Source: Spiroplasma helicoides
GTDB taxonomy: Bacteria > Bacillota_I > Bacilli_A > Mycoplasmatales > Mycoplasmataceae
Direction: 5' to 3'
DNA length: 64,000 bases
Assembly (NCBI RefSeq): GCF_001715535.1
Contig: NZ_CP017015.1
Coordinates: forward strand, 1,054,001-1,118,000
Below are positions 12,319 to 28,423 of the stretch, piece by piece. The translations under genes and the position numbers were made by a program. Each line of letters starts with the position of its first letter. Positions within the stretch are counted from its first letter, which is position 1. The notes beneath the pieces were generated by a model. That model was not told the DNA's origin. It made no database searches and worked only from the letters and a program-made list of their open reading frames with translations.

Positions 12319-12564
12319 TTATCTTCATAAATAAACTAGAACATTTGCATCTTTACCACAAGCACATGTGCCAGCATTTTCTTTTTTTTCTTTTAATTCA
12401 ATGAAAGCAAAGTCATCACTCATTTTACCATTTTTTAAAGATTCTTGAACTTTTGGTCCAAGTTCTAATGCAGCTAAAACAGTTTTTCCTTCACTTAATA
12501 AATTACTAATAGCTTGAAAATCCCCATTAGTAATTTCTACAGCATTGTTTTTATCTAAGGCCAT
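12319..12564 (-). CDS. 81-residue Cys-containing protein, divergent from HxlR regulator
   Basis: Small soluble protein, MALDKNNAVEITNGDFQAIS..., with a terminal CACGKDANVLVYLWR in which W is TGA. The stop is therefore TAA at 12319, two codons past the standard-code end. GGAG precedes the ATG. The C-A-C pair could bind metal or react with electrophiles. That would fit control by the divergent HxlR-type regulator, a family whose members often sense aldehydes, quinones or oxidants through an N-terminal cysteine. I do not recognise the family. The divergent arrangement and shared palindrome make it the likely regulon target. Confidence 0.75.
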
Positions 12565-13685: not shown

Positions 13686-14188
13686 AATTTATCCACCTTT
13701 ATTTATTTGATTTTACTATTAATTACTATTAAATTACTTAATTTTTTTATAGTTTTGAATATTTTTTACAATAGTTAATACAAATTACTTGTTGTTAAAA
13801 GTTTTAATCACCTATAAGATTTATTTCTATTAAAACTTAATTTATAGAATAAGACAAGTTAGATAATTAAAATACTTATTTTTTGTATCATTTGCAATGA
13901 TATTTTTAAAGAAAAATTTTATTTGATTTAAGTCATAATAATTTAATTGTTAAAAAATATATAGATTTGTTGTATTTATTTAACTTTAATAATTAATGGT
14001 TTATATGGTTATCAAATTTATTTATTTTTAAAATAACTTTTAAGTACTTTTATTTGTTTATCCCCTATTCTTTTAGTATAAAGTTTCAGATAATGAAGAT
14101 ATAGCTAATATTTATACAAAACATAGAACTTTATCAAGTTTTTATATATTTATTCTATTTAAAAATACATAATGAAGTTATTTTATCA

Positions 14189-17129
14189 GTTATACTACTA
14201 CATAATTTTACAGGGTACCATAACCTAGTGCTTCATCATCATTAAAACTAAAAGGTTCTACTACTACATAATTTTACAGGGTACCATAACCAATATCAGA
14301 AATTAAACTTTGATTAAAGTGTTCTACTACTACATAATTTTACAGGGTACAATAACCAATTAGAACTGAAATTATATTTTTATGACGTTCTACTACTACA
14401 TAATTTTACAGGGTACCATAACTTATAGTCATTAATGTGATTATTAAATTCTAGTTCTACTACTACATAATTTTACAGGGTACCATAACATACATTAATC
14501 GCTACATTTGTTATTAATTGTTCTACTACTACATAATTTTACAGGGTACCATAACATATTGAACCAACATGCGAGTTTGTTGCTGGTTCTACTACTACAT
14601 AATTTTACAGGGTACCATAACAACACTTTCTATAATATGTTCATCATTAAGGTTCTACTACTACATAATTTTACAGGGTACCATAACAATTGATACTATT
14701 TCATTTCTCAAATTCTTGTTCTACTACTACATAATTTTACAGGGTACCATAACATAAAAAAAGGAGAAATAAAAAATGATAGAGTTCTACTACTACATAA
14801 TTTTACAGGGTACCATAACAGATAATAATTAATACTGGTATATTATTAAGTTCTACTACTACATAATTTTACAGGGTACCATAACAATTTTGTTCAACAT
14901 AATTATCTAGATTTTGTTCTACTACTACATAATTTTACAGGGTACCATAACACATGGGCGATAAAACAGAAATCGTGCAAAGTTCTACTACTACATAATT
15001 TTACAGGGTACCATAACTGGATGTTGCTTACAACAAACTTGTTTACAGTTCTACTACTACATAATTTTACAGGGTACCATAACTTTGCAATAAACATTAA
15101 CATGAATATTGCTGTTCTACTACTACATAATTTTACAGGGTACCATAACTCAATTGACCAAGAAATGTTTCTAGGTTTTGTTCTACTACTACATAATTTT
15201 ACAGGGTACCATAACGCTGCCTCTGTTGCTTCTGGAGTGGCTTCAGTTCTACTACTACATAATTTTACAGGGTACCATAACCAGCAACCATTAAAGCAAT
15301 GGTTAATAACGGTTCTACTACTACATAATTTTACAGGGTACCATAACCATTATATTTTGGATCAGCAAAACATGTTAGTTCTACTACTACATAATTTTAC
15401 AGGGTACCATAACTTGAGCAAGTTGAGTGATATGAAGCATATAGTTCTACTACTACATAATTTTACAGGGTACCATAACCTAGTTTTATAACTTATTTTA
15501 TACATTTTTGTTCTACTACTACATAATTTTACAGGGTACCATAACGTGGCAATGTTGAAATACAGGAAAACCACAGTTCTACTACTACATAATTTTACAG
15601 GGTACCATAACTAAACTCTTCTAATCAAGGTCTATCTTTTTGTTCTACTACTACATAATTTTACAGGGTACCATAACTATACTCTATTTTTTTATCTCAT
15701 GAGATTAGTTCTACTACTACATAATTTTACAGGGTACCATAACTAGTGATAAGTTTTAAAACCTTATCTATATGTTCTAATACTACATAATTTTACAGGG
15801 TACCATAACTCGGCACTATTCAATGTTTTAATAAAAGTCGTTCTACTACTACATAATTTTACAGGGTACCATAACATGTATAGGTGCAGTTTTATGTATT
15901 ATAGGGTTCTACTACTACATAATTTTACAGGGTACCATAACCTACATGAGATATCTTCGTGTCTAAATCTTGTTCTACTACTACATAATTTTACAGGGTA
16001 CCATAACCATTGAGAGAAAGGGTCTATTTTGTTTAATGTTCTACTACTACATAATTTTACAGGGTACCATAACGCTCTGTTTCTGCTAGTTTTTGGTCTT
16101 TTGGTTCTACTACTACATAATTTTACAGGGTACCATAACCTGGGCATTCATTAATATATTTATCTACTTGTTCTACTACTACATAATTTTACAGGGTACC
16201 ATAACTAAGTGTCTTCCATGTATTGTTTGTCAAAAGTTCTACTACTACATAATTTTACAGGGTACCATAACATCACAAGTGTGGAACTTATTTAAGTACA
16301 AGTTCTACTACTACATAATTTTACAGGGTACCATAACTTGGTATAGTGAAATAGTCTTCTAAAACCTGTTCTACTACTACATAATTTTACAGGGTACCAT
16401 AACGAGCTAGGTTTGGAAGCCAACTAATTTTAAGTTCTACTACTACATAATTTTACAGGGTACCATAACCTATTCCTAATTGACTAAAACCTAGTGCTTG
16501 TTCTACTACTACATAATTTTACAGGGTACCATAACTAACAATCACATTAGGATTTGAATTTGATAGTTCTACTACTACATAATTTTACAGGGTACCATAA
16601 CACAACTCACCCAAGGCCTTTTGTTTTTTATGTTCTACTACTACATAATTTTACAGGGTACCATAACGACAGTACAGTGAATTCAATTTATGACATGGTT
16701 CTACTACTACATAATTTTACAGGGTACCATAACAATAAGCCACTATCAATTAAACCAATCTCGGTTCTACTACTACATAATTTTACAGGGTACCATAACT
16801 AACCAACAAAATAAGTAATTTACAAAGTAGTTCTACTACTACATAATTTTACAGGGTACCATAACCAGAGGATATTGTGAATAACTATGGTGGTAGTTCT
16901 ACTACTACATAATTTTACAGGGTACCATAACAAAAGTATTTTTTTTTATTTTTACTCTTACGTTCTACTACTACATAATTTTACAGGGTACCATAACCAT
17001 TATAAATTTTTTGTTCTATCTGGTCCGGTTCTACTACTACATAATTTTACAGGGTACCATAACAGTTCTAGTTCAAATTCACACTTAGATTTTGTTCTAC
17101 TACTACATAATTTTACAGGGTACCATAAC
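14189..17129 (-). CRISPR. Type II-A CRISPR array, 45 repeats of 36 bp and 44 spacers
   Basis: The repeat read in the crRNA direction begins GTTATGGTACCC and ends GTAGTAGAAC (36 bases). The period is 66 with 30-base spacers, except one 31-base spacer at 14423-14453. Orientation is minus because the tracrRNA anti-repeat at 19357-19391 pairs with the minus-strand transcript and because ATTTGAG abuts the 17129 end. Only three repeats deviate: the outermost (14189, A for C), the third (14321, C to A) and one at 15774. Degeneracy at the 14189 end fits the oldest, leader-distal end. No spacer repeats another. The spacer at 14754-14783 contains an AAGGAG-spacer-ATG gene start, as expected from a Mollicute phage or plasmid. 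Confidence 0.98.
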
Positions 17130-19310: not shown

Positions 19311-19399
19311 AAAAAAAGAGGAATAAATTCCTCAGTAACGGCATTTAAGCCTTATATATGGTAGTCCTGTAAAATTATGTAGTAGTAGAACCCATATAC
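19311..19399 (-). ncRNA. tracrRNA
   Basis: Lies between cas9 and cas1. On the minus strand 19391 down to about 19357 reads GTTCTACTACTAC...TTTTACAGGACTACCATATAT. This is complementary to the crRNA repeat except for a small asymmetric bulge (one base opposite two), the usual recognition bulge. Then come AAGGC-TTAAAT-GCC (nexus hairpin) and GAGGAAT/ATTCCTC followed by seven U (terminator, 19311-19333). The start at ~19399 is inferred from the promoter overlapping the cas9 stop. The RNA directs RNase III processing of pre-crRNA and is bound by Cas9. Confidence 0.92.
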
Positions 19400-22710: not shown

Positions 22711-23670
22711 TTAAAATTCGTTGTATTCATATATAGAAATTAAAAATATTGTAATAAGAGATACCGTGCTATCTAAAATATCATAATCAGACTTATTTTT
22801 TAAATCATCAAGTATAAAGTACAATGGCAGTAAATGAACTGTGCTATTTCTTAAATTTTTAAGGTCTCTACAAAAAAAACTGTTAGCCTTAATTATTTTA
22901 CTATACTCACTTTCTATTTTTTCCACGCATGCTATATTGTTTTCAAAAAAAAACTTTCTTATTACCGTGTCATCAACCTTAGAAATTATTGCATCTAAAA
23001 TAATTTCTGAAGTATGCTCATCTTTATATTTAAAACATCATTCTTGATACCTATTATTTAGCAAATTATAAGAAAGTTCAACATTTAAATACCCTATTAG
23101 TGAATACATTTTTTCAAAAAGAATTACTCTTTCATCAAACAAATTTAAATCTTTAAATATTTTTTTAGATTCTTCATAGCTTTTTAGCTCTTTGCTATGT
23201 AAAAATTTTATTCATTCTTTTTTTTCCTCATAAATTTTTAAAAAATAATTTATTGCATCTATAAAAAAATTTATACTGATAGGAAATTTATAAAAAAGTT
23301 GTTTTATATTTTTTATGCTTTTATCTTTATTATTAATAAATTCCGAAATAAAAGATCAAAATATTTCGTCATAGTCGTTTTTTAGTTTTTGAAAAGACTT
23401 GTAATCCTTATTTAAACTTTCAATATTTTTAAAACTTGATTTATAATTTTGAATAGCGTTTTTTCATAAACAGAAAACTTCTTTTACATTTTTTTCATTT
23501 TAATCTAATTTTACTTTATCTTTATTTAGTAAATTTTTTAACTTAGCAACTGCTATTTTTTTTTCATTTTCAAACTGAGTAATCAGTTTATATTCATCCA
23601 TATTATTCATATAAGTTCAAAGTCTTAAAAACTTATTTTTTAATTCCAAAATTATATCTTTTATATTCAT
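22711..23670 (-). pseudogene. HEPN-like helical protein, 319 codons, in-frame TAA at codon 57
   Basis: ATG at 23670 follows AAGGTGA and gives MNIKDIILELKNKFLRLW.... The frame meets TAA at 23500-23502, then stays open to 22711 with unchanged composition and no other start codon for over 150 codons. This indicates one gene with a nonsense codon or read-through. Near the C-terminus LKNLRNSTVHLLPLYF contains R-N-x3-H (about R274, H279), the pattern of HEPN ribonucleases, set in a helical context. That resemblance is motif-level only. It is 34 bases after the 500-residue gene and 74 bases before cas9, all on the same strand, so it probably belongs to the helicase operon. Confidence 0.6.
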
Positions 23671-23704
23671 ATAGTCACCTTCATATTACATGTATTTTAA
23701 AATA

Positions 23705-25207
23705 TTATCTCTTTTTATTTTTCTTTTTTTTAGAGCTATTATTGTTACTTTTCTTTATCCCTTTATTTTTTATTTGTTCTGCTACTATGTCATTTATATT
23801 TTTATAATATTTCACTTCTTCAAAAGTTTGTTGTAGTTTGAATATATCTTTACTGTCAATTGTTTTTTTATTATGTGCTATATTTTTATTGTAAAATTTT
23901 TTTAACTTTATTAAATTTTCATCATTCATATCTAGTTGTTTCATATTTTCTCTGACTCCAGATCTTGACATATCTCCGAGCATTCGAGAAATTTCATCAC
24001 TTAATGATTTACAATTGTTAATATAATTTTGGGCAGCTAGAAGATCTTTATCACTTAATATAGATTTATGTCTATGATAAATTTCTACTAAGTCTTTTTC
24101 AGCTAATTTTAATTTATCATTTATTTGATATATATTAATCAATTGATTTAAATTTTCAAAACTTTCATACATAACTTCTAATGATTGAAAGTCTCAAATA
24201 TTTTTTAATTCAGTTCCATTTTCTTCAATAAGTTTTAAACCTAGTTTCGTAATTTCTGGTGAGTTTTTTACTAATAGAAGTTTATTGACTACTTCGCATT
24301 TTAATTTACTGTCTGAGCTTGATGATATAAGTTTTATTAGTATTTTATTTTTTATTTCATTTCACCCATTGTTTAATAGTAAACTTTCAAGAATTTGATT
24401 AAATAAATCCACCTTAGTTTTGTCTTCATATCTTAATTTATTTTCATATAATCAATAATTTTGGTATTTTAAACATATCATAACTTCTTTTGCAAACTCT
24501 TCATTTAATAAAATGATTTTATCATTATGCTCATAATGAAATTTATTTGTTATCATATCTACATCAAAATCATTTAACTGTTTAAACTCTCCATCTATCA
24601 AATCGTTTTTCACTTGAAGACCTTTTAAATCAATGTCTAAATTTTTAGTTATATAATTTTCAAAATCTTCATGTTGTATAATAAAGTAATCACTTTTATT
24701 GGGATCTAATCTTAGAAAAATTTCATCATTATCCACTTTGAATTGATAACTGTCAGTTGAATTATTTTCAATTCCATCATTTTTAAAGCTTGATTTAATG
24801 AATGTTTCATCTTGGTCAATACTTTCTTTTATAAAATTTTCCTCTTCAAAAACATTACCTTTAAAATATTGACGTTTAAATATAGTTAAGTCTAAACTTG
24901 GTATGTAACTATAATTTAAATTTTTTATTAGCTTTATTGGTATTAAAGAATTTAAAATTATTTTTTCAATCTCTTCTATATCAAATTCTTCTTTCATTTC
25001 AGTGTACTTATTTATAAAAAAGTCATACAAGCTACCTTTACCAGTAATTGAAAAAATTAGTTCTATAGCATCATTTTCGTTATTTGTATTTTTTATGATT
25101 GAAGCAATTAAATATTGATCGAATGTCGATTTTTGAAACTTACTTGTAACTATTTCAATAGTTCTATCTATTTTAAGTAAATTTAAATGAGCTGTTCCCT
25201 TTAACAT
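23705..25207 (-). CDS. Unknown 500-residue partner of the SF1 helicase
   Basis: Overlaps the helicase 3' end by 35 bases in another frame (MLKGTAHLNLLKIDRTIEIV), showing translational coupling. The N-terminal ~200 residues are mixed alpha/beta with DQYLIASIIKN and an acidic stretch. The rest is helical. LKKFYNKNIAHNKKTIDSKD near residue 430 resembles the RDKxxAH helix of AbiU2/HEPN-type proteins, but the Arg is replaced. The tail is strongly basic (KKKKNKKR), suggesting nucleic-acid or ribosome contact. No confident family assignment. The coupling implies it works in a complex with the helicase. Confidence 0.7.
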
Positions 25208-27713
25208 CTATAATTTCTCCTTCTACACTTATTTGCAAGTAACCTTCATATTTTTTTATAGTTCCTATTATTTCTCCTAAGTACTTTCTTTTGTTACTGT
25301 TTGGTGCTTTCATTTCAAGCTTTTCTAAATTTCTACTACCAAATAAAAATAACTTATCCCTGGCTCTTGATAAAGCAACATTAATTCTTCTAAAATCTTC
25401 TAAAAAAGTTTTTTTAGTTAAGTCTGTAACTACAGTACTTACTAAGACAATATCTGTTTCTCTACCTTGAAATGCATCAACTGTGTCGATTTCAAAACTT
25501 TTAAAAGTTTTTTTTACTTTATTAATTAGTGGTTTATTTTCATTAATAAATAACTTTAATTGATCTTTATATGGAAAAATTATTGATACTGTTGTATTGT
25601 TTGGGTTATCGCATTTTTCTAAAACCTCAGTTAAAACTTTACTAATTGCTTTACTTTCTTGAACATTGAATCTAGAAGTTGATCCAGGATTAGAAGTGTC
25701 AGTCCCATTTAGTGGTTCTAAAAAATAAATATCTTTTTCGTTATTTAAATAAGAATCATTTTTAAAGTATACTTTTTTATCATTAATTCCATTTCTATAA
25801 CCAGTAAGTTGATTATCATAAAATATATTATATGCACCAAATATTTGTGGACATGATCTATAATTGATATCAAGCATTATCAACCTATCGCTTTGTTCAG
25901 CCTTTTTAATAGTTTTGGAAAAAACAGACTCACGATAAATTTTTTCTAATTGATCAAACTTATCTTCATCAAAAGATTTTAAATGCTTTACCTCATCTTT
26001 ATTAAATTCTAATAAGGGAGCTAATTGGTAGTCATCACCAACTAAAATTATTTTTTCAACGTATGGTAGATATCTTAAAACTTCTGTAATAGGACATTTT
26101 GATACCTCATCAATAATTAATCAATTATAATCTTTTAAAACTTCTAAACCTTTTTTCCCGGAAATTGCTGTTGTTGTTGTAGTGGCACCAATTACTAAGT
26201 AGTCAGGATTGCTGCTGCTTGTATAATTTAAAAGGTTCTCTCCTTTAAAATTATTTAAATCATTTAAAATATTATTTTTTATACTAACGTTTTCATAATC
26301 TTCTAATCAGTTAGATATTTTTTGTCCTCAAGTATTATACAAAGTTTCATCTAGTTGTGATTCACTGTATCTATTGATTTTATTTGTTATTCTTTTTGGG
26401 ATTATTGGATCTTTGTTTTCAAATAACTTATCTAGCACATTATCAATAGCAACATGAGTTTGTGATGAAATAATGACTTTCTCTTTTAACTCTTTTGTAA
26501 TATATTGAACAATCGCATTTATTACATGAGTTTTACCTGTACCTGGTGGTCCTTTAATAAGAGTTATTGGTGAACCATCAATCGCTTTTAAAAAGGCTTC
26601 TCTTTGAGATTCATTTAAATTTTTAGTATATTCATTTGTTACTTCACTTGCTATGAAATTTATGTGATTATTTGGAATTGTTTCATCTCCAATTAAGTAC
26701 TCAATTAAATTAATTGCTGCACTACTATTACCTTGATTAATCAGTCTTAAAGAATTATCAATTGATTCAATTTTTATTTCTTGCCCTTTATCATAAAGAT
26801 TTATAAATGAATATTCTAATTCATTTTTTTGATCAACTTTTACATAAATTTCTATTATACTTTTGTTTTCTATAACATTCATAACATCCAACTGTTTGAT
26901 ATTATTGGAGTTTTTAGAATCAATATTTTGAAAATTACTTGCAAATATATTTTCTTTTGCCCTGGAAAGCTTTGCATATCTACCTTTTTTGTTTTCAATA
27001 TCAATAATTATAATTTCTTCTACTTTATTTTTAATATTGTTTGGCATTCTTGAATAAACATTTAATGGAGCCTCATACCCCATTATCATATCTCTCTCAT
27101 CATACATAGTTATTAAGTCTGTATATACATCTTTTAAACTTCCATCATTCTCAAATAGCTCTTTACAATCTACTGAAATAAATTTTATTTTTTCTGAAAT
27201 ATCTTTTATCTCATAGTTTTCATTATTATTGATCTCATTGTACAATTCTTTATAAAAATGAAATATTTCCATAAACTCATCAAACTGAGAAATATTAAAC
27301 TCGAAATTATCATCATCAATTAAATCGTTTAAAAATTCTTTTGTATCTTCTATGCTTGATGGGTTTGTGTGTACAAATTCAATCGATTTCTTACAACCTT
27401 TTAATTTTTCAAATTCTACATTATCTAGCTTTCTGAAATTAAATACAAATACTTCTCCACCAAAAGGATTTGTATACGAGCACTGAACACTACACTTCAA
27501 AATGACTACTCCCTTAGTATAATTAAGTATTATTTCGACATTTCTTATTCCTTTTATTTGTGTTTCATCTTTTCTATCATATTCTATTTCTAATTGTTTT
27601 GTAGTAAATTTAACCTCAAGACAGTCTGAACCATATAGTCCTTCAACAATATCTTGTCATTCATCTTTTTTATTTAAATTATCAGTATATTTAAGTTTAA
27701 ATTGTGTTTTCAT
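25173..27713 (-). CDS. UPF1-like superfamily 1 helicase, 846 aa
   Basis: ATP-dependent 5'-3' RNA/DNA helicase type. The first ~370 residues are a non-helicase N-terminal region beginning MKTQFKLKYTDNLNKKDEW. The core follows: LNESQREAF (Q-like motif), GPPGTGKTH (Walker A, ~387-394), IIDEVSK (motif II), LVGDDYQLAP (motif III), LDINYRSCP (motif IV), VDAFQGRETDIV (motif V) and RINVALSRARDKLFLFGS (motif VI). No nuclease domain is visible at the C-terminus. The ATG at 27713 is used because the upstream frame is open and a GAAAGGAAC site precedes it. It overlaps the preceding gene by 17 bases and the next by 35. Such helicases occur in several anti-phage systems (e.g. Mokosh); here the partners differ. 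Confidence 0.9.
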
Positions 27714-28134
27714 TTTGTTCCTTTCTAAAATCATATGAGCTTTCTATTAACTTTAATTTTTTTGCTTTATATTTTTTTGAATCTATATCTTTTAGCTTTT
27801 TATAACTTTTTTTATTAGTTTTTATTTTTTGATTTCTTGTATAGTTTGGCTCATCAACTAATCTATGTGTAAATAACTTTTTTCTACTCCTTGTGCGTCT
27901 ATCTAAAAAATAGATATCATTTCTATTACTTTTAATTATTTTTAGATATTCGTCTTCGTCTATTTCTATTGGAATTTCTAAACACCAATCAATATGATCT
28001 TTTTTTATTCCTCTTCTTTTAAAGGCTTCTTGACTAGCTTCTTTTGTATTATTAGCTTTTACTGCAATATAAATTGGCAGGTATTTGTCTCTACCTACAT
28101 GTCCAAACTTACAAAGTACTTTAAAAAATTTAAT
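27697..28134 (-). CDS. Small CGHVG-like protein, 145 aa, probable ATT start
   Basis: Reads KFFKVLCKFGHVGRDKYLPI then YIAVKANNTKEASQEAFKRR, DHIDWCLEIPIEIDEDEYLK and a basic C-terminus (KSYKKLKDIDSKKYKAKKLK). The only credible start is ATT at 28134, six bases after a strong AGGAGG (28141-28146). No ATG, GTG or TTG occurs in frame near it. The final 17 bases overlap the helicase ATG. I recall C-GHVG-.-.Y-(I/L)P small proteins next to helicases in Firmicutes but cannot confirm it here. Probably an accessory or sensor subunit of the helicase system. Confidence 0.75.
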   Translation of the reverse strand: MKFFKVLCKFGHVGRDKYLPIYIAVKANNTKEASQEAFKRRGIKKDHIDWCLEIPIEIDEDEYLKIIKSNRNDIYFLDRRTRSRKKLFTHRLVDEPNYTRNQKIKTNKKSYKKLKDIDSKKYKAKKLKLIESSYDFRKEQNENTI

Positions 28135-28198
28135 AATATCCCTCCTAATCTTGATTGATATATAAAAGTGATAATTAATAAGGTAAACAAAAAAATTA

Positions 28199-28303
28199 TT
28201 AATAGTTAAATCGTAAGTTTTGTTTATAAGGTGTACAACCTACTCAGATATTTCTACCTTTTGGGGTGTTGAACTTTAATATAAAGCTCTCTTCGTTTTG
28301 CAT
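28199..28303 (-). CDS. 34-residue ORF at head of helicase operon
   Basis: MQNEESFILKFNTPKGRNIW then VGCTPYKQNLRFNY, with W as TGA. No Shine-Dalgarno, but an A/T -10-like TATTATATT directly precedes the ATG, so the mRNA could be leaderless. It is 64 bases upstream of the 145-residue gene with no terminator between them. The bases at its start codon (ATGCAAAACGAAG) and at codons 22-25 (TGTACACCTT) are each complementary to the small RNA encoded just upstream. Coding status rests on composition and context only. Confidence 0.45.
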
Positions 28304-28323
28304 AAATATAATAACATATAAAT

Positions 28324-28423
28324 AAAAAAAGTAAACTAAAAGTTTACTTTTTTTATACTCTATGGATGTACACCTTAAACAATGCAAAACGAAGATGCAC
28401 ACCCGTGGTTTTTCGTTTTGCAT
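28324..28423 (-). ncRNA. Putative ~100-nt structured small RNA or attenuated leader
   Basis: Starts about 28421-28423 after an extended -10. It folds AATGCAAAACGAA against TTCGTTTTGCATT (13 bp, with a small CAC/GTG inner hairpin) and ends in a 14-bp stem (AAAAAAAGTAAACT / AGTTTACTTTTTTT) that is a terminator on both strands. Its 5' sequence also reads MQNEKPRVCIF in the same frame as the 34-residue ORF downstream, so it may be a duplicated operon head rather than a dedicated RNA. Segments CTTCGTTTTGCAT and AAGGTGTACA are complementary to the downstream ORF. Confidence 0.45.

What the first reader, a model, noticed from the sequence alone, without database searches (positions are those of the whole stretch)
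22711..28303. Uncharacterised helicase-centred operon directly upstream of cas9
Five same-strand genes with overlaps or short gaps: a 34-residue ORF, a 145-residue CGHVG-like protein (ATT start), a UPF1-like SF1 helicase with all motifs but no nuclease domain, a 500-residue protein translationally coupled to it (35-base overlap), and a 319-codon gene with R-N-x3-H near its C-terminus. The helicase and its partner together with a possible HEPN ribonuclease would make a nucleic-acid sensing plus RNA-cleaving effector. Position next to a CRISPR locus adds to the case for defence. I cannot match the set to a named system.
Basis: partly seen in the sequence, partly recalled or inferred. Interest (0 to 1): 0.85.

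Follow-up and report, generated by a model that had tools for sequence, protein, structure and literature searches.

The report
RNA-controlled helicase operon with swappable effectors
Next to a Spiroplasma CRISPR locus lies a probable anti-virus operon built on an RNA helicase and a previously unclassified partner protein; in related bacteria the same pair carries different toxin or antiviral genes (viperin among them), and it is almost always preceded by two small RNA elements that have co-evolved to base-pair with each other, an arrangement I could not match to any named defence system.

Summary
The helicase (25173-27713, minus) and the 500-residue partner (23705-25207, 35-nt overlap) are real. 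The '34-residue ORF' is not a gene, and the '319-codon gene' is cut by an in-frame TAA after 56 codons. The same overlapping pair occurs in 10 genomes (three Spiroplasma, seven other Bacilli), sporadically, with changing companions: prokaryotic viperin (2 loci), a PDC-S46 ABC-ATPase, RNxxxH proteins, an HNH protein. It is a modular core with an exchangeable effector slot, not a fixed helicase-HEPN operon and not part of CRISPR. The unexpected finding is noncoding: all 9 loci with upstream DNA carry a structured leader RNA; 8 also carry a small RNA just upstream whose segments pair with the leader and covary across lineages (95.5% of cells paired versus 79.4% in shuffles; 13 of 22 pairs changed on both sides). 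Strong leader-model hits fall only in genomes that hold the pair (392- and 160-genome scans). Best explanation: an abortive-infection-type system gated by an sRNA-leader switch. RNA pairing and modularity are shown; antiviral function and switch mechanism are inferred. No Rfam, Pfam, NCBIfam, PHROGs or PADLOC model covers the RNA, partner or gene A.

The parts
28320..28421 (-). small RNA gene (sRNA): core 28364-28421 followed by an intrinsic-terminator hairpin (about 28328-28350); TATAAT 6 nt upstream of its 5' end
   Evidence: Conserved in 8 loci; own -10 box 6-7 nt before the 5' end; hairpin followed by a T-run (the L018 hairpin was read by eye only); stems 8 bp, lineage permutations 1/720 and 4/720. 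Transcription itself is inferred.
   Evidence: Covariance model R1, 73.6 bits, E about 5e-13, in 9 loci (these sequences built the model); hairpins hp1 6/5040, hp2 1/5040 permutations; trans pairing 95.5% versus 79.4% shuffled
28308..28335 (-). leader promoter, TTTACT-16-TATTAT with TG before the -10
   Evidence: consensus scan; -10-like hexamer at the same place in 8 loci
27697..28134 (-). gene A, 145-aa CGHVG-like protein of unknown function, ATT start
   Evidence: homologues in L004, L005, L006, L029 (45-52% identity to L006) and distant ones in L032 and a phage (L016)
25173..27713 (-). UPF1-like SF1 helicase, 846 aa
   Evidence: AAA_11/AAA_12; MkoA model E 5e-77 over its helicase part; nearest solved structure UPF1, profile E 8e-33; 43-60% identical homologues
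23705..25207 (-). partner protein, 500 aa, overlapping the helicase gene by 35 nt
   Evidence: 9 homologues, 24-35% identity; AF2 pLDDT 87, beta-rich N-terminus plus alpha-helical repeat C-terminus; no significant PDB match
23500..23670 (-). D1: 56-codon ORF, including its TAA stop
22711..23499 (-). D2: 262 open codons with LRNSTVH (RNxxxH); lacks a usual in-frame start, probably disrupted
   Evidence: homologous to an intact 247-aa protein at the same place in L004

Best explanation
A modular accessory operon, most likely anti-phage of the abortive-infection type. The constant core is a UPF1-like RNA helicase plus a translationally coupled partner with an alpha-helical repeat region; I propose that they form a complex that senses or remodels abnormal RNA. 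An exchangeable slot carries the damaging or chain-terminating effector: viperin, HEPN-like protein, PDC-S46 ABC ATPase, HNH protein. Expression is gated by RNA: a small RNA made just upstream pairs with the 5' leader of the operon mRNA (11-12 bp at the 5' end, 9-12 bp at segment c, and a shorter middle segment), competing with the sRNA's own pseudoknot-like fold and with a leader-internal GUAGG:CCUAU helix. When phage infection disturbs host transcription or RNA, the balance of the pair shifts and the operon is expressed or its complex activated. SHOWN: pair conservation, swappable neighbours, sRNA-leader covariation, tight co-occurrence of leader RNA and protein pair. INFERRED: transcription of both RNAs, which state is 'on', helicase-partner binding, antiviral function, the trigger.
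For: Pair in 10 genomes with 32-44 nt overlap. Companions: viperin above the NCBIfam cut-off (241 vs 180 bits) and pVip E 2e-69 in L006, the same arrangement (CNYRCSYCF) in L029; PDC-S46 E 5e-94 in L005; RNxxxH proteins in the window, L004 and L030; HNH in L018. Neighbouring defence-type genes (TmtA-like, AbiE-type pair, Z1/HATPase, restriction-modification-like). Sporadic: 3/149, 7/392 (two of them a fragment or weak), 4/160, 4/245 genomes. RNA: leader helices and trans helices each at or near the best of all lineage permutations; trans pairing 95.5% vs 79.4%, 13 of 22 pairs with two-sided changes, 0/500 shuffles, slid versions at most 49%; segment c alone 92.7% vs 73.8%. Leader-model strong hits = pair-bearing genomes only, in 392 and 160 genomes. 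-10-like boxes 6-8 nt before both RNA starts in all 8 loci.
Against: No expression, binding or phage data. The sRNA is not seen upstream in L029, and L017 (G284) shows no leader on its short contig, so the RNAs may not be needed everywhere. No common terminator or RBS-masking structure lies between leader and first gene, so how pairing would control the operon is unclear. L031 and L032 show no obvious adjacent effector. The window's own effector gene looks broken. Arms for the trans-pairing test were chosen by hand from the sequences, so slid controls overstate the contrast, and the lineages are not fully independent.
Confidence: 0.5

Rival explanations
1. Ribonucleoprotein sensor: the sRNA and leader are not mainly regulators but form a two-RNA complex that binds the helicase-partner proteins, for example through the invariant AAAAAGG and UCUGAGUAGG loops; disturbance of that complex releases or activates the effector.
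For: Loop sequences, not only stems, are nearly invariant across distant Bacilli; RNA and proteins co-occur tightly; the sRNA order b'-a'-c' against leader a-b-c gives a multi-helix, pseudoknotted two-strand architecture.
Against: The leader lies at the 5' end of the operon, directly behind a promoter-like site, 55-137 nt before the first gene, as an mRNA leader would; no protein-binding data.
Confidence: 0.25
2. Antisense-controlled RNA-surveillance operon without a defence role.
For: UPF1/SEN1-type helicase; an antisense-like sRNA is a common control device.
Against: Sporadic presence in a few per cent of genomes, viperin and PDC-S46 companions, defence-type neighbourhoods.
Confidence: 0.12
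3. One reading: a fixed helicase, partner and HEPN ribonuclease effector set.
For: LRNxxVH conserved between window D2 and the L004 protein at the same place; the L030 461-aa neighbour has LRNCWLH with a weak RTasHEPN match, E 0.013.
Against: The third gene differs between loci and is disrupted in the window; HEPN fold not demonstrated.
Confidence: 0.08
4. Part of, or an accessory to, the adjacent CRISPR-Cas9 locus.
For: 75 nt from cas9 on the same strand.
Against: I saw no cas genes beside the pair among the ORFs of the related loci; the neighbouring cas9-cas1-csn2 set is of a kind already described in Spiroplasma (PMC6882279).
Confidence: 0.02

Closest known systems
Mokosh (MkoA helicase)
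   Same: COG1112/UPF1-like SF1 helicase core; best PADLOC match E 5e-77
   Different: no kinase or PLD nuclease domain found; the MkoA N-terminal 388 positions are unmatched; different partner, accessory genes and RNAs
Prokaryotic viperin (pVip)
   Same: two loci carry a bona fide viperin between gene A and the helicase
   Different: viperin is an optional cassette here; absent from the window and from most loci
PDC-S46 (PADLOC candidate)
   Same: full-length homologue directly after the partner in the L005 locus
   Different: here tied to the helicase-partner core; absent from the other loci read
Antisense-RNA-controlled toxin operons (type I toxin-antitoxin)
   Same: small RNA complementary to the leader of a probably toxic operon
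   Different: sRNA encoded upstream on the same strand with its own terminator; multi-segment covarying pairing; large enzymes instead of a small hydrophobic peptide
UPF1 / SEN1 / IGHMBP2 helicases
   Same: helicase core
   Different: bacterial accessory gene with its own conserved N-terminal region of about 350 aa

Membership tests
Mokosh type I/II | COG1112-type helicase core | tested here: met
   MkoA model E 5e-77, protein 158-822
Mokosh type I/II | kinase domain with the helicase, or PLD nuclease fused or adjacent (feature set from my own knowledge; PLD also in PMC10952713) | tested here: not met
   No kinase or PLD Pfam match in helicase, partner or neighbours scanned; alignment leaves the MkoA N-terminus unmatched
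Prokaryotic viperin system | viperin gene above model cut-off | tested here: not met
   Not met for the window operon; met in L006, and a homologue with the CxxxCxxC motif in L029
HEPN ribonuclease (gene D) | RNxxxH motif | tested here: met
   LRNSTVH in the window, LRNIIVH in L004
HEPN ribonuclease (gene D) | HEPN helical-bundle fold and family profile | tested here: inconclusive
   no Pfam, PADLOC or PHROGs match; AF2 pLDDT 36
Type I toxin-antitoxin | RNA that base-pairs with the toxin mRNA leader | tested here: met
   covarying trans helices; pairing in the cell not tested
Type I toxin-antitoxin | small hydrophobic toxin peptide | tested here: not met
   operons encode large proteins; the 34-aa frame is not conserved
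CRISPR-Cas accessory | recurrent association with cas genes | tested here: not met
   I found cas genes only beside the window copy when reading the ORFs of the related loci
Known RNA family (Rfam 15) | match at gathering score | tested here: not met
   (the window stretch was scanned by E-value; best 25.7 bits against a cut-off of 45)
Anti-phage defence | protects against phage | not testable with these tools
   needs a phage challenge

The most novel reading that the evidence does not exclude
A new class of RNA-dependent immunity in which two co-evolving RNAs, one of them the operon's own leader, form a complex with a UPF1-like helicase and a new partner family and act as the sensor for phage, licensing interchangeable effectors that include viperin, the bacterial relative of the human interferon-induced antiviral protein.
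Probability: 0.28. Interest if true: 0.93.

Novelty: new variant of a known kind. Interest (0 to 1): 0.8.

Why it matters
It links a UPF1-type RNA helicase, viperin and other effectors into one modular system with a dedicated, covarying RNA pair; the RNA, the partner and gene A matched none of the curated libraries tested. The RNA gives a precise, testable handle: compensatory mutations in defined 9-12 bp helices should switch the system, and the leader model can find further loci. It would offer a genomic context, and possibly a control mechanism, for some bacterial viperins.

Tried and rejected
Known-system match: PADLOC, Pfam, NCBIfam, PHROGs, Rfam gave only the MkoA/UPF1 helicase core for the window's own genes. 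Partner as nuclease or HEPN: its FYNKxxAH motif is confined to the Spiroplasma proteins; Foldseek best E 0.08, VIA best Z 6.2 to generic helical repeats, which does not exclude a known fold. HEPN fold of D: prediction failed, pLDDT 36; no further homologues of the L004 protein in 60 relatives. Mobile-element carriage: no match of partner or gene A on plasmids; the RNA pattern and the helicase and gene A patterns gave nothing in viral contigs; only distant helicases and one distant gene A homologue in phages. Leader as attenuator: no consistent terminator or masked RBS before the first gene. The sRNA middle segment b is too conserved to test by covariation (97/720). Second full copy of the RNAs in the genome: none; the other matches are short pieces. 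Weak leader-model hits (E 0.006 and above, G412, G472, G202 and others) left as probable noise. The first leader alignment put hairpin 1 out of register (44% paired), so its arms were compared by hand. Seven paper searches (an eighth returned an error) found no description of this combination.

Full report
SETTING. The window is G000 C1:1054001-1118000 of a 1.33-Mb single-contig genome whose genes read under table 4; gene content and relatives indicate Spiroplasma (the name was not given by the tools). On the minus strand the order is: noncoding region 28434-28140, gene A, helicase, partner, D1/D2, then cas9, cas1, a csn2-type gene (PADLOC PDLC01596, E 9e-114) and a CRISPR array with 66-bp units. 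Type II-A systems in spiroplasmas are described (PMC6882279).

OBSERVATION. The helicase and partner are open, well formed and overlap by 35 nt. Gene A is real: no ATG/GTG/TTG exists between the upstream stop and its conserved CKFGHVG motif, but it has AGGAGGG followed by ATT. It begins beside a poly-A tract, so slippage is conceivable; I treat it as broken or unproven. An intact 247-aa homologue occupies the place in L004.

RELATIVES. The partner profile found full-length homologues in two other Spiroplasma (G013/L004, G006/L005) and in seven other Bacilli: G452 = Bacillota MAG contig JAHIRQ010000162 (L006), G540 (L029), G514 (L030), G404 (L018), G553 (L031), G620 (L032), G284 (L017), plus a fragment in G244. 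In each the helicase lies immediately upstream with a 32-44 nt overlap. Helicases are 43-60% identical to the window's, partners 24-35%: the partner evolves much faster. Frequencies were 3/149, 7/392, 4/160 and 4/245 genomes, the samples overlapping, i.e. a sporadic accessory module.

EFFECTOR SLOT. L006 and L029: gene A, viperin, helicase, partner. The L006 viperin scores 241 bits against a cut-off of 180 for NF038283 and E 2.4e-69 for pVip, with CNYMCAYCF; L029 has CNYRCSYCF. L005: a 771-aa ABC-type ATPase matching PDC-S46 end to end after the partner. L004 and window: RNxxxH proteins. L030: a 461-aa protein with LRNCWLH before the helicase, weak RTasHEPN match. L018: a 103-aa HNH protein a few nt after the partner, above the Pfam cut-off. 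L031 and L032: no clear effector. Neighbourhoods contain TmtA-like, AbiE-type, Z1/HATPase and methylase genes.

THE PAIRED RNAS. Upstream of the first gene in nine loci lies a leader with the pattern GC..AACGAAGG, hairpin 1, CACCC AAAAAGGT, hairpin 2, ATCTGAGTAGG, segment c. In eight of the nine an sRNA starts 119-169 nt further upstream, beginning with the same GC..AACG and followed by a hairpin with a T-run. A -10-like hexamer stands 6-8 nt before both 5' ends in all eight. The sRNA carries segments complementary to leader segments a, b and c. Across lineages the element reads GCAAAACG, GCACAACG, GCGGACG, GCGCAACG, GCGAACG or GCACAATG, and all three occurrences change together.

TESTS OF THE RNA. 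Cognate duplex energies for a and c are the best of 720 lineage permutations. Longest-run tests: hp1 6/5040, hp2 1/5040, hp3 1/120, sRNA stems 1/720 and 4/720, trans a 1/720, trans c 1/720. On a gap-free alignment of the trans segments 95.5% of cells pair (shuffled 79.4), 13 of 22 pairs have two-sided changes (shuffled 6.1) and the covariation score is 0.511 (shuffled 0.190; slid at most 0.146); segment c alone 92.7% versus 73.8%. The arms were hand-chosen and the lineages are related, but concerted two-sided changes at this rate are hard to explain without pairing. The leader also has an internal GUAGG:CCUAU helix using segment c, so sRNA binding at c would exclude it: a two-state element. 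Rfam has no match at gathering score in the related loci; an E-value scan of the window stretch gave only sub-threshold hits.

CO-OCCURRENCE. The leader model R1 gave strong hits (E at most 5e-10) in exactly G000, G006, G013, G404 among 392 genomes and in exactly G404, G452, G514, G540 among 160, each a genome with the protein pair; other hits had E of 0.006 or more (against 33, 42). These loci built the model, so their own hits are expected; the informative part is the absence of strong hits elsewhere. G284 has the pair but no leader on its 8.6-kb contig.

PROTEINS. The helicase core is UPF1/SEN1/IGHMBP2-like, with a conserved N-terminal region of about 350 aa. The partner model is confident (mean pLDDT 87, pTM 0.61): beta-rich N-terminal half, helical-repeat C-terminal half; no significant fold match, which does not prove a new fold. 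Gene A is unassigned; a distant homologue lies beside anaerobic ribonucleotide reductase in a gut phage.

MECHANISM. The strongest chain is: a covarying sRNA-leader pair occurring with one helicase-partner pair and, in most loci, a plausible toxic or antiviral enzyme. The simplest reading is an RNA-gated abortive-infection operon. Whether the RNA pair only sets expression or is itself the sensor bound by the proteins is open; I put about 0.5 on the first and 0.25 on the second. Defence function is inferred from companions, neighbourhood and sporadic distribution only.

NOVELTY. Mokosh is the nearest named system and fails on its kinase/PLD features as far as tested. Viperin and PDC-S46 are known parts in a new setting. 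I found no description of this combination in the papers searched, but preprints and subscription papers are mostly not held and the PADLOC copy dates from 2023, so prior description cannot be excluded.

Noticed in passing
window 28134; L004 12330; L005 12484: Gene A in all three Spiroplasma loci has no ATG/GTG/TTG start but ATT, ATA and ATC respectively behind a purine-rich SD-like stretch, as in infC; homologues in L006, L029 and L031 start with ATG. Suggests initiation-factor-3-sensitive translation.
   Followed up: partly
L031 14087-14505: Gene A homologue is frameshifted between the leader and the helicase.
   Followed up: no
L016 7009-7416 (phage NatCom_17901): Distant gene A homologue directly upstream of anaerobic ribonucleotide reductase genes in a human-gut phage.
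   Followed up: no
L017 955-1590: CARF-domain protein (PADLOC CARF2, E 2e-78) a few genes upstream of the helicase-partner pair in G284.
   Followed up: no
L007 416-1369: Isolated N-terminal third of the helicase in a Lachnospiraceae MAG contig, next to ribosomal protein genes: a remnant or an assembly join, hinting that the family reaches Clostridia.
   Followed up: no
L029 8865-9096: Leader present but no sRNA recognised in the 230 nt upstream that the contig holds.
   Followed up: partly
L004 about 12330-12386: The ribosome-binding site of gene A can be folded into a hairpin (AATACCT with AGGTATT); not seen in all loci.
   Followed up: no
G412:C24:38586-38652 and G472:C8:14487-14553: Two related genomes share a weak leader-model hit (27-28 bits); probably noise, possibly a distant relative of the leader.
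   Followed up: no
window 14100-17100: CRISPR array with 66-bp units, and an anti-repeat at 19366-19392 between cas9 and cas1 (likely tracrRNA).
   Followed up: no
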